Shown: positions 47,141 through 50,950, numbered from the stretch's first letter. The stretch: DNA of 64,000 nt from Methanomicrobiales archaeon (GCA_025350045.1 JANXYM010000043.1:28894-92893), one strand, 5' to 3'. Translations and numbers: made by a program. The notes: generated from the letters alone by a model not told the origin.

Positions 47141-47845
47141 ATGACCACACCCGGCATATCGTCCAGTCTCGTCATCCCCGCATATAACGAGGAGAACCGG
47201 ATCCAGTCACTCTTCGACGAGATAACAGCGTTCGATGGGGAGCTTATCGTAGTCTGTGATGGTAACGATCGGACTGCCAATTGTGTCAGCAGGATCGCGG
47301 GCAGAAGAACGGATCTTACTATCCGCTGTCTGGTGTTCGATCACCGGCTCGGGAAGGGAGGGGGCGTGATAGAAGGGCTCCGGGCAGCCCGGGCACCTCT
47401 CGTGGGGTACTGCGATGCTGACGGTTCCACAAGCATCGGAGAGATGCAGCGGCTCTTTTCCTACCTTTCTCATGCCGATGGGGCGATCGGATCGCGCTGG
47501 GTGCCGGGCTCGACCCTTCGTGTGCGACAGGGAATACTGCGCAGGATGGAAAGCCGGGCATTCAATCTCCTGATCCGGCTGCTCTTCGGTCTTACCTACA
47601 GCGACACACAGTGCGGGGCAAAGGTGTTTAAAAAAACCGCAATCGATGCCGTTCTGCCGCAGATGACATCGCGGGGGTTCGAGTTCGATGTCGAACTGCT
47701 CTGGCGACTCAGGCAGGCCGGGTTATCCGTAACGGAAGTTCCCATTGTCTGGCAGAACAAAGGGGATTCCCGGGTACAGAAGCGGGACATGATCCGGATG
47801 CTCACGGGCCTGCTTGCGATCCGGTTCAACTCAGGAAATGTATGA
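47141..47845 (+). CDS. Family 2 glycosyltransferase (dolichyl-phosphate-sugar synthase-like); ORF track start 47099, likely start ATG at 47141
   Basis: SSLVIPAYNEENRIQSLFDEI, LGKGGGVIEGLRAARAPLVGYCDADGSTSIGEM, IGSRWVPGS, YSDTQCGAKVFKK, FEFDVELLWRLRQAGLSVTEVPIVWQNKGDSRV. Confidence 0.92.
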   Translation: MTTPGISSSLVIPAYNEENRIQSLFDEITAFDGELIVVCDGNDRTANCVSRIAGRRTDLTIRCLVFDHRLGKGGGVIEGLRAARAPLVGYCDADGSTSIGEMQRLFSYLSHADGAIGSRWVPGSTLRVRQGILRRMESRAFNLLIRLLFGLTYSDTQCGAKVFKKTAIDAVLPQMTSRGFEFDVELLWRLRQAGLSVTEVPIVWQNKGDSRVQKRDMIRMLTGLLAIRFNSGNV

Positions 47846-49668
47846 TACCATCGTCAAGAGAAGAGCAGAAGACCGAGGCATTCAGGCTTTTTGAAGACGG
47901 GCGGTATATCGAGTCCGGCCGGCTCTGCACCATCCTTTTGGAATCAGGCAGGGATTCTGCTATCGATGTGCTCGCCGCAACGAACCTCTACTATATGGGA
48001 AAGCTCGATGAGGCGGAAGTCTTTTTTAAGGATCTTGCGCAGAAGATGCCTGACTCTTCCTATGTGCACAGTTACCTGGCAAAAGTGTTTGAAGCACGAG
48101 GGGACGAAGCTGCAATCGCCGAGTACGCAACTGCCGTTCATCTCGATCCTTCCAACCAGGATGCCCTGCGGGGTTATGCAGAGTATCTCCTCACCCACAG
48201 GGATTACCAGGCCGCACTGCCGGTCTTTAAGCGGCTCGTGCAGATCAGTAAAAAACAGGGTGATGTCCATCATCTGATGCAGGCGCACCTTGGGATTGGC
48301 GAAGCACACGAGGCACTCTCAACCCATGACCTGCTGGGGGGCGGGACTGCACCGGGCCACGAATATGTCGATGCGCTGGTGAAGACCGGCAACTTCCCTG
48401 CAGCCACGGAACTGGCGAACCGGATCTATAAAGAGACCCGGGATCCTGCAGTGCTCAGGAAATATCTGTCTGCTCTCTCCGTTTATGATGTGCCGTCTTC
48501 GCTCGAGGCTTACACCGATCATACCCGGTCCGGCACCGATTGCGGGATCCTCTTTGACTACGTACTGCTCCTGCAGGCCCACGGGAGGACCAAAGAAGCG
48601 CTGGCTACCGCACAGGAACTCGCCGGACGCTCATGCCAGCCGGTATATCATCTTCTGGTCTGCGATCTGCTCGCGGCCCATGCACACGCCGGGAAGGAGA
48701 GGAAGGAAGCTCTTGCTGCATACGAACAGTTGATCCGGGACGAGCTGGCTGCCAAAAATGATCTTGACCTGCTCCGGACGATCATCAGCAGGTACCGCCA
48801 GCACCTCACCGCGTGGATTCCGGCAGAAGAGGCAAAACGCAGGTTCCTTGACATTGTCTCAAAGGATGTGAATGTGGCAAGCCTGCTCGAGACCGCTCTG
48901 TTATACGAAGAGGCCGGGGATGCCGCAGAAGCCCGGTCCTGGTATTACCGGGCGTACAGGGCAGATTTTCTGACAGGAGGGCTTGCCTATGCACAATACC
49001 TCGATATTCACGGCGAATTGCGCGAGTGCGAGAAAGTGATGCTTTACATCCTCTCGAACGTGAAAAAGAGCACAGACACCAGCAGGGTGGCAGCCGTGAT
49101 CGTGCAGAGGCACGGAACCATGCACCGGTTAAAGCGGTTGATGGAGCAGCTGCTTGCAACACTCGAATCCCGCCGGGAGACACTGAATTCAGAAGGTCTC
49201 GAACTGCTCGCAATGGCGTTTTTCATTGCCGGAACCAATGCACACGAAGAGCAGGACTACGCAGGCTGCAAGTATTACTGTCTGAACGGCATGGACGTGA
49301 TGCCGGCTCACTCCCGGGCCATTGCGCTTGAGGATTTTCTCACCCTGATCCGGGCCTGCAAGGAGAAGTCGGTGGCCGATCGCCCTGTCATGAACGTGCC
49401 CGAGGTAAAAAAACGGGCAGCAGCCGGTCCTCCGGCACAGGTGATCACCGATCAGCTCGGTCTCACCGAGCAGGAGGCAAAGATCCTCGAGTTCGTCCGG
49501 CTGCACAGGACGGCAAACGAGATGGAACTGCGAAAAGTGCTGGGCACACGCAGGGTGGTCGGGATTGTCAACCGCCTGATCCAGAAAGCAGAAGCACAGG
49601 GATTGTTACTGATCGCAAAGAAAGGAGTTGGGGAGGATGGGGAAACCTATGAATATACCGGAACCTGA
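47842..49668 (+). CDS. TPR-repeat protein with C-terminal winged-helix-like domain
   Basis: ORF 608 aa; TPR-type repeats (SYVHSYLAKVFEARGDEAAIAEYATAVHLDPSNQDALRGYAEYLL); C-term LTEQEAKILEFVRLHRTANEMELRKVLGTRRVVGIVNRLIQKAEAQGLLLIAKKGVGEDGETYEYT is wHTH-like. Confidence 0.85.
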   Translation: MIPSSREEQKTEAFRLFEDGRYIESGRLCTILLESGRDSAIDVLAATNLYYMGKLDEAEVFFKDLAQKMPDSSYVHSYLAKVFEARGDEAAIAEYATAVHLDPSNQDALRGYAEYLLTHRDYQAALPVFKRLVQISKKQGDVHHLMQAHLGIGEAHEALSTHDLLGGGTAPGHEYVDALVKTGNFPAATELANRIYKETRDPAVLRKYLSALSVYDVPSSLEAYTDHTRSGTDCGILFDYVLLLQAHGRTKEALATAQELAGRSCQPVYHLLVCDLLAAHAHAGKERKEALAAYEQLIRDELAAKNDLDLLRTIISRYRQHLTAWIPAEEAKRRFLDIVSKDVNVASLLETALLYEEAGDAAEARSWYYRAYRADFLTGGLAYAQYLDIHGELRECEKVMLYILSNVKKSTDTSRVAAVIVQRHGTMHRLKRLMEQLLATLESRRETLNSEGLELLAMAFFIAGTNAHEEQDYAGCKYYCLNGMDVMPAHSRAIALEDFLTLIRACKEKSVADRPVMNVPEVKKRAAAGPPAQVITDQLGLTEQEAKILEFVRLHRTANEMELRKVLGTRRVVGIVNRLIQKAEAQGLLLIAKKGVGEDGETYEYTGT

Positions 49669-50950
49669 ACGGATGGACCAGCGCAGGCTCGAGAGCATCA
49701 ACATTATTAATGCTTTACGCCGGGGCACGGTCCCTGCAGGCGGGCTGGAGCGGATAGCCGTAGGGCTCGACGTTGAAGAGGGTGTGATCAGCCGGCAGTT
49801 GGATTATGTAGCCCAGAGCGGCGGGGATCTCAAGTTTATCCGGGGTGAGTACGGGAGCGGCAAGACGTTCCTGGTTGCCCGGGCACTCGAGATCGCCCGC
49901 ACAAAGGGATTTGTCACCTCGCACGTTATCATCTCATCCTCCACCCCGCTCTACAAGATCAAGGGGATCTACCAGCAGGTCTGTGCAAACCTCCGTACTG
50001 GAGGGGAAGAGCATGCGATCAAGACGGTACTCGACAACTGGCTCTTTGCCATCGAAGAGCGGCTGCTCTCGGTGAGCAAGACAGATCTTGAAGACGCTGC
50101 ACTCGAAGAGGCCACGGAGCGGGAGATCGAGACGGCACTCAGCGGCATCAGCGAAGTGAACACTGCTCTGGCTGCGGCACTGCGCACGTACTACCGTGCG
50201 AATAATACCGGCGACTTCCAGCTGGCCCAGGCAGCACTGGGCTGGATCGCCGGTGAACCCAATATCGGCCGGGACTTCAAGCAGAAGGCAGGGATCAAAG
50301 GCGAGATCGATGACACCATCGCGTTTGTCTTCCTGCGGGGCCTCGTGTCGATTATTCACGGGGCGGGCTACAGCGGGATTGCGATCGCGGTAGACGAGAT
50401 GGAGACCACGCAGGGACTCCAGCGCAACCAGCGGGAGAAAGGGTACCACACGCTCGTCCGGATCATCGATGCACTCGACCGGGGCGATATGCCCCGCTGT
50501 TTCTTCCTCTTTACCGGCACTCCTGCCATGTATGACGGTTCACGCGGCATCCGCTCCGTTCCCCCGCTCTACGATCGCATCAGCGTGGTGCAGAACGACG
50601 CCTATCGCAATCCCCGCCAGCCACAGATTATGCTGGAGAAGTTCGATACGTCAAAGCTTGAACTGGTGGCGATCAAGATCGTTGATGTCTACGCCCAGGC
50701 GTACTCGGAACCGGACCGCGAGCGGATCTCGCACCGCTTCATACGGGCCATGATCAAAAAGATTACCACCCGGTTCGGGGGCAGGGTGGACGTTATTCCC
50801 CGCATATTCTTAAAAGAGTTTGTCGATGTGCTGGACAAGTGCGAGCTCTACGAGGATTATACTCCCGGTGATGCCTACGACTTTGATGCCGAGCACCTCA
50901 AGGGGGATCTCAGGAAAGAGGAGGAGGCGGTGATGGTGGTCAGGTTCTGA
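49628..50950 (+). CDS. BREX-type ATP-binding protein, BrxC/BrxD-like (DUF2791 family); start may be ATG at 49649
   Basis: ORF 440 aa; KFIRGEYGSGKTFLVARALEIARTKGFVTSHVIISSSTPLYKIKGIYQQVCANLRT; GIAIAVDEMETTQGLQRNQREKGYHTLVRIIDALDRGDMPRCFFLFTGTPAMYDGSRGIRSVPPLYDRI. Confidence 0.8.
   Translation: MGRMGKPMNIPEPERMDQRRLESINIINALRRGTVPAGGLERIAVGLDVEEGVISRQLDYVAQSGGDLKFIRGEYGSGKTFLVARALEIARTKGFVTSHVIISSSTPLYKIKGIYQQVCANLRTGGEEHAIKTVLDNWLFAIEERLLSVSKTDLEDAALEEATEREIETALSGISEVNTALAAALRTYYRANNTGDFQLAQAALGWIAGEPNIGRDFKQKAGIKGEIDDTIAFVFLRGLVSIIHGAGYSGIAIAVDEMETTQGLQRNQREKGYHTLVRIIDALDRGDMPRCFFLFTGTPAMYDGSRGIRSVPPLYDRISVVQNDAYRNPRQPQIMLEKFDTSKLELVAIKIVDVYAQAYSEPDRERISHRFIRAMIKKITTRFGGRVDVIPRIFLKEFVDVLDKCELYEDYTPGDAYDFDAEHLKGDLRKEEEAVMVVRF

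What the first reader, a model, noticed from the sequence alone, without database searches (positions are those of the whole stretch)
47141..50950. Translationally coupled GT2 / TPR-winged-helix / BrxD-like ATPase cassette without other BREX genes
Three same-strand genes overlap end to start (GT stop overlaps the TPR start by 4 bp at 47842-47845; TPR stop at 49668 lies inside the ATPase ORF beginning 49628 or 49649). The ATPase has RGEYGSGKTF and VDEMETTQGLQ...LFTGTPAMYDGSRGIRSVPPLYDRI, typical of the BREX BrxC/BrxD DUF2791 family. No BrxA, BrxB, PglX, PglZ, BrxL or helicase gene is nearby, and the partner is a long TPR protein with a C-terminal winged helix. This may be an uncharacterised ATPase/TPR-wHTH module (stand-alone defence, or control of a surface-glycan process given the GT2). 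Function is inference.
Basis: partly seen in the sequence, partly recalled or inferred. Interest (0 to 1): 0.72.

Follow-up and report, generated by a model that had tools for sequence, protein, structure and literature searches.

The report
Split BREX-like motor fixed in methanogens
Two overlapping genes in this methanogen, a BREX-type ATPase and a helical-repeat (TPR) partner, belong with a helicase encoded far away on the chromosome; the three are inherited and lost together as a fixed part of one methanogen order, which suggests an unstudied DNA-surveillance machine built from parts known from antiviral systems.

Summary
In detail: the GT2, TPR/winged-helix and ATPase genes overlap as described, and the ATPase is a true BrxD-family protein (Pfam BrxC_BrxD 432 bits; NCBIfam BrxD 401 bits against a cut-off of 350). 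The interpretation needs correcting. The ATPase is not stand-alone. A BrxHI-family helicase, on another contig in this genome, follows the TPR-ATPase pair: among 132 near-complete Methanomicrobiales genomes, 83 have all three genes, 49 have none, and none is discordant. In one clade (a closed genome and two MAGs) both loci are gone. In the closed genome and one MAG every flanking gene examined is still in place at both sites, and the GT2 gene is kept, so GT2 is not part of the unit. BREX and Shango, the known users of the BrxD/BrxHI dyad, are patchy here (PglZ in 26 of 199 genomes, none in this one). The trio is vertically inherited and sits among housekeeping genes. Best reading: a dispersed three-protein DNA-remodelling complex, with an ORC/Cdc6-type AAA+ loader, an Lhr/BrxHI helicase and a TPR-winged-helix adaptor. 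Whether it serves genome maintenance or fixed antiviral surveillance is open. New variant of a known kind.

The parts
47842..49668 (+). TPR superhelix protein (608 aa) with a C-terminal winged helix (about residues 532-605); proposed adaptor/scaffold
   Evidence: Pfam TPR hits; AlphaFold2 pLDDT 90, about 28 helices then an H-E-H-H-E-E winged-helix topology; wHTH columns E560, R564, R570, R571, K582, G595, G600, E601 and Y603 invariant; adjacent to the ATPase in 46/46 genomes
49628..50950 (+). BrxD-family AAA+ ATPase (conserved start probably ATG 49649); Walker A RGEYGSGKT, Walker B VDE, sensor-like GTP, putative Arg finger R317
   Evidence: PF10923 432 bits, NF033438 401 bits; active-site residues invariant in the trio and in BREX BrxD; tree branch with BREX BrxD, not Shango SngB
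47141..47845 (+). GT2 glycosyltransferase, translationally coupled neighbour; judged NOT part of the functional unit
   Evidence: 4-bp overlap; missing beside the pair in family f4 and genus g27; retained in G156, G178 and G197 where the pair is deleted

Best explanation
The TPR-winged-helix gene and the BrxD-like ATPase gene encode two subunits of a three-protein DNA-remodelling system whose third subunit is a BrxHI-family (Lhr/Ski2-like SF2) helicase encoded elsewhere on the chromosome (this genome: contig C78:73757-75904, minus strand). SHOWN: the three genes are co-inherited and co-lost although unlinked, their catalytic motifs are intact, and the unit is vertically inherited and fixed in three families of Methanomicrobiales. 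INFERRED: the ATPase forms an ORC/Cdc6-type oligomer; the TPR superhelix holds ATPase and helicase together; the winged helix binds DNA; and ATP turnover loads or licenses the helicase on abnormal DNA structures such as forks. The most likely biological role is genome surveillance or replication-coupled repair by a chromosomally fixed relative of the BREX-2 and Shango motors. An antiviral role for the same machine is the main rival.
For: Family assignment of the ATPase and of the helicase (PADLOC BrxHI 515-524 bits against SngC 378-397, whereas a true SngC from the same order scores 788 to SngC). Co-occurrence 83 both / 49 neither / 0 discordant in genomes at least 90% complete. Joint precise deletion of both loci with flanks collinear in closed genome G156 and MAG G178; the pair's site is also empty in G197. 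pyrG tree puts G156 and G197 inside carriers. Adjacent, overlapping pair in 46/46 genomes. All three proteins diverge 1.3-1.5-fold faster in genus g12 while housekeeping genes are at 1.0-1.25; residual rates correlate, r 0.77-0.90. Trio ATPase and helicase are each monophyletic, 100/100. Housekeeping surroundings: pyrG, guaA-like, hisD; thioredoxin, lysS, infB. BrxD is classed as ORC/Cdc6 AAA+ and a suggested BrxHI loader (PMC12839542); archaeal Lhr acts on replication forks (PMC7437997).
Against: No physical interaction, expression or phenotype data; no complex was modelled. The ATPase model is only moderate (pLDDT 78) and its fold matches, ORC/Cdc6 and BrxC among them, are weak (E above 0.002). 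The winged helix matches no known family by sequence and rests on predicted topology. The deletion clade is one event, and the family-level pattern may be only one more. The rate correlation is not specific (argD also correlates) and TPR-ATPase falls to r=0.15 without g12. The TPR and helicase evolve fast for housekeeping proteins (mean distance 1.45 and 1.13 against 0.34 for pyrG), which would also suit an immune role. Loss is tolerated, so it is not essential.
Confidence: 0.6

Rival explanations
1. Fixed antiviral immunity: the trio is a third BrxD/BrxHI-based defence system (TPR-wHTH in place of Shango's TerB protein or BREX-2's PglW/PglX/PglZ), kept permanently in these families rather than carried in islands.
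For: Both enzymes come from families known only from defence systems; Shango has the same ATPase plus helicase plus one partner and blocks phages (PMC10250203). The TPR and helicase subunits evolve quickly. The clade that lost the trio (G156, G178, G197) carries a strong PglZ, and G156 a PglZ-BrxL locus, as if replaced.
Against: Present in all near-complete carriers and vertically inherited, unlike Shango paralogs and PglZ (26/199) in the same order; split over two housekeeping loci; G047 has both PglZ and the trio.
Confidence: 0.3
2. Relic of a degraded BREX locus, kept by chance and without present function.
For: ATPase scores above the NCBIfam BrxD equivalog cut-off; other BREX genes missing.
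Against: Walker A, Walker B and helicase motifs invariant across three families; frames open in nearly all genomes; a partner absent from BREX is always adjacent.
Confidence: 0.03
3. Regulatory module for the adjacent GT2 gene (surface glycan control).
For: Translational coupling of GT2 and TPR in this genome and GT2 next to the pair in most f1 loci.
Against: GT2 absent beside the pair in f4 and genus g27, retained where the pair is deleted; the co-inherited partner is a helicase instead.
Confidence: 0.02
4. The co-occurrence of pair and helicase is only shared ancestry: independent core genes gained once and lost by coincidence.
For: Few independent events: the pyrG tree needs about three changes.
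Against: Clean deletion of both unlinked loci in the same lineage with flanks intact, a probable second joint absence in G179 (85% complete), shared acceleration before loss, and the known BrxD-BrxHI dyad in BREX-2 and Shango.
Confidence: 0.07

Closest known systems
BREX type 2 (Pgl) BrxD-BrxHI dyad
   Same: Same ATPase family (33-40% identity, shared active site) and same helicase family (PADLOC BrxHI above 500 bits); BrxD plus BrxHI as functional pair.
   Different: No PglX, PglZ, PglW or BrxC; helicase unlinked; a TPR-wHTH partner with no counterpart found; fixed and vertical. PMC12839542 reports no archaeal type-2 BREX.
Shango (SngA TerB-like, SngB ATPase, SngC helicase)
   Same: One partner protein plus BrxD-like ATPase plus BrxHI-like helicase; true Shango occurs in the same order and is distinguishable.
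   Different: Partner is TPR-wHTH, not TerB (one search finds no similarity); ATPase and helicase on separate branches; not an operon; not patchy.
ORC/Cdc6-type AAA+ initiators and loaders
   Same: BrxD is classed as ORC-Cdc6 AAA+ in PMC12839542; weak fold matches to A. pernix ORC2 and eukaryotic ORC.
   Different: No significant sequence match to solved structures; no ORC winged-helix domain in the chain, though the partner carries one.
Lhr-Core / aLhr helicases
   Same: The helicase has DEAD, Helicase_C and WH_Lhr domains and best solved match is mycobacterial Lhr.
   Different: About 710 aa, scores as BrxHI, and is additional to the ~900-aa Lhr found in nearly all of these genomes.
Ski2-Ski3 (helicase plus TPR scaffold)
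   Same: Ski2-like helicase served by a long TPR scaffold; Ski3 appears among fold matches of the TPR protein.
   Different: Generic TPR similarity with low TM (about 0.3); analogy only.

Membership tests
BrxD (NCBIfam NF033438 equivalog) | Whole-protein score above the curated cut-off of 350 bits | tested here: met
   401 bits
BrxD | Walker A/B, sensor-like and Arg-finger positions shared with BREX BrxD | tested here: met
   G73, G76, G78, K79, T80, D256, E257, T298, R317 invariant in the trio and in five BREX BrxDs; finger assignment inferred
BREX type 2 | PglX, PglZ, PglW and BrxC/PglY encoded with BrxD and BrxHI | tested here: not met
   No PglZ in this genome or in any same-genus genome shown; no second PF10923 protein; none of these genes beside the pair
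BREX type 2 | BrxD adjacent to a BrxHI helicase | tested here: not met
   Helicase on another contig here and tens of kb to over 1 Mb away in closed genomes
Shango | TerB-domain SngA | tested here: not met
   Partner is TPR plus winged helix; hhalign against SngA not significant
Shango | Three-gene operon SngA-SngB-SngC | tested here: not met
   Helicase in trans; PADLOC prefers BrxD (405) over SngB (160)
BrxHI helicase (the trans subunit) | Best match to BrxHI profile over SngC and other helicases | tested here: met
   PDLC02503 515 bits, SngC 378
ORC/Cdc6 AAA+ | Fold similarity to ORC/Cdc6 | tested here: inconclusive
   ORC chains among top Foldseek hits, but E above 0.001 and TM 0.4 or less
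Anti-virus defence system | Protects against virus infection | not testable with these tools
   Needs an infection assay

The most novel reading that the evidence does not exclude
A third class of BrxD/BrxHI machine, split over two chromosomal loci with a TPR-winged-helix adaptor, that works in core genome maintenance of Methanomicrobiales. It would be either the non-immune stock from which BREX-2 and Shango motors were drawn, or an immune motor that became a housekeeping complex.
Probability: 0.4. Interest if true: 0.75.

Novelty: new variant of a known kind. Interest (0 to 1): 0.62.

Why it matters
BrxD and BrxHI are described only as parts of mobile antiviral systems, and what the dyad does is unknown. 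Here the same dyad is a fixed, vertically inherited part of an archaeal lineage, freed from the methyltransferase/phosphatase machinery and joined to one simple adaptor. It also warns that genome annotators and defence finders will label a core archaeal gene as BREX.

Tried and rejected
GT2 as a functional partner: rejected. Thioredoxin beside the helicase as a fourth subunit: common neighbour (c1 in 15 of 20 loci) but retained when the helicase is lost. Large PAS-kinase gene upstream of the pair in family f4: lineage-specific. Homology of the TPR partner to SngA, to the 258-aa protein of the f12 operon or to Deinococcus partners: none by hhalign, although each was compared as a single sequence, which is weak. 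Fold search with the TPR model: generic TPR hits only. Sequence search with the winged helix alone: nothing convincing. Rate covariation as independent proof: supportive but not specific. Literature: no paper found on BrxD/BrxHI in Methanomicrobiales.

Full report
OBSERVATION. GT2 ends at 47845 and shares ATGA with the TPR start at 47842. The TPR stop at 49668 lies inside the ATPase frame, which opens at TTG 49628 with in-frame ATGs at 49637 and 49649; alignment of relatives favours 49649. Profiles identify the ATPase as BrxD family: PF10923 432 bits, NF033438 401 bits (cut-off 350), PADLOC BrxD 405 bits, SngB 160 bits. It is the only PF10923 protein in the genome.

THE PAIR IS REAL. In a phylum-wide sample of 345 genomes, full-length matches to the ATPase profile and to the TPR-wHTH profile occur in exactly the same 46 genomes, always adjacent, same strand, same order, overlapping or nearly so. 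All lie in one order, families f1, f4 and f6. Named relatives are Methanoregula, Methanolinea and other Methanomicrobiales. In order-wide sampling every genome with the ATPase ortholog has the TPR gene (111 of 111; two more, incomplete, have the TPR only). AlphaFold2 gives a confident TPR superhelix with a terminal H-E-H-H-E-E winged helix (pLDDT 90). That domain is not recognised by sequence, so DNA binding is inferred.

THE MISSING HELICASE IS IN TRANS. In BREX-2 and Shango this ATPase is followed by a BrxHI/SngC helicase, and none is near the pair here. Searching the order with a Shango helicase from L143 showed an extra ~710-750-aa helicase in the carrier families only, alongside the ~900-aa Lhr found almost everywhere. 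It scores 515-524 bits to PADLOC BrxHI and 378-397 to SngC, whereas a true SngC scores 788 to SngC. It has DEAD, Helicase_C and WH_Lhr domains. A profile of 20 such helicases, all with invariant helicase motifs, was run over 199 genomes. Among the 132 genomes at least 90% complete, 83 have pair and helicase, 49 have neither, none is discordant. The eight discordant genomes are all 74-86% complete.

JOINT DELETION. Genus g12 contains carriers (G149, G164, G168, G172, G182) and non-carriers (G156, G178, G197); the pyrG tree places G156 and G197 within the carriers. In closed genome G156 the order is pyrG, 4HBT, GT2, hisD, with the pair absent between GT2 (ends L227:11752) and hisD (starts L227:11777); G178 and G197 show the same. 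At the second locus, G156 and G178 keep lysS, two flanking reading frames, thioredoxin, a 760-aa gene, a metallo-beta-lactamase-like gene and infB in the order of carrier G182, but the helicase is gone; no remnant was found in G156. In G182 the two loci are about 46 kb apart, so this is two deletions. G156 has 3,544,738 bp, the size I recall for Methanospirillum hungatei JF-1 (own knowledge, not tested). G179 (85% complete) also lacks all three and carries a three-gene locus of Shango layout.

RATES AND HISTORY. Relative to other carriers, g12 sequences are 1.43-, 1.32- and 1.47-fold more distant for TPR, ATPase and helicase, against 1.01-1.25 for five housekeeping proteins. Partial correlations of distances given pyrG are 0.77-0.90, but argD also correlates with the trio and, without g12, only the two pairs involving the helicase remain (0.50, 0.53); I treat this as support, not proof. 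In trees with BREX and Shango relatives, trio ATPases and trio helicases each form one clade (100/100), the ATPases branching with BREX BrxD rather than SngB. Positions for Walker A, Walker B, the GTP sensor-like motif and R317 are invariant across trio and BREX BrxD.

NOT BREX, NOT SHANGO. No PglZ is found in this genome; PglZ occurs in 26 of 199 genomes of the order. Type-2 BREX, the home of BrxD, is reported without archaeal members (PMC12839542). Shango requires a TerB protein and an operon (PMC10250203); neither is met.

MECHANISM. PMC12839542 suggests BrxD loads or activates BrxHI. Archaeal Lhr, the nearest studied kin of the helicase, remodels replication forks (PMC7437997). A survey of Lhr proteins lists only scattered archaeal Lhr-like members (PMC8301817) and does not describe this lineage-wide one in the passages read. 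I therefore propose an AAA+ loader, a Ski2/Lhr-type helicase and a TPR-winged-helix adaptor acting on abnormal DNA. Fixation, vertical descent and housekeeping surroundings favour a maintenance role. Rapid evolution of two subunits, family kinship with defence genes, and a PglZ-BrxL locus in the closed genome that lost the trio keep an immune role open. No interaction or function was measured.

Noticed in passing
L248:9302-13996 (G156); The genomes that lost the trio (G156, G178, G197) all carry a strong PglZ; in G156 it is followed by a gene read by eye as BrxL-like. Of seven strong PglZ carriers in the order only G047 also has the trio, so replacement is possible, but the numbers are small and the clade counts once.
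   Followed up: partly
L136:349-4517 and L135, L137 (family f12): Another archaeal family has a three-gene operon: a 258-aa protein of unknown family, a BrxD-like ATPase (222 bits) and a BrxHI helicase (527 bits), without the TPR protein.
   Followed up: partly
L178:2987-15188 (Deinococcus psychrotolerans plasmid): Two tandem BrxD-like/helicase units, the first beside a leucine-rich-variant repeat protein and a weakly TPR-like protein, with no other BREX genes annotated in the stretch.
   Followed up: partly
L036:1719-7289, L037:2157-7343, L040:12729-17519 (family f4): In family f4 a 1600-1860-aa multi-PAS histidine kinase gene with a receiver domain lies directly upstream of the TPR gene where GT2 sits in f1.
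   Followed up: no
window 1160-34496: A dense run of very large multi-PAS sensor kinases (1902, 1698, 1692 and 882 aa) and receiver-PAS proteins fills much of the first half of the window.
   Followed up: no
L154:10318-10719 and related loci: A thioredoxin gene lies close upstream of the BrxHI helicase on the same strand in many of the 20 carrier loci but is retained when the helicase is deleted.
   Followed up: partly
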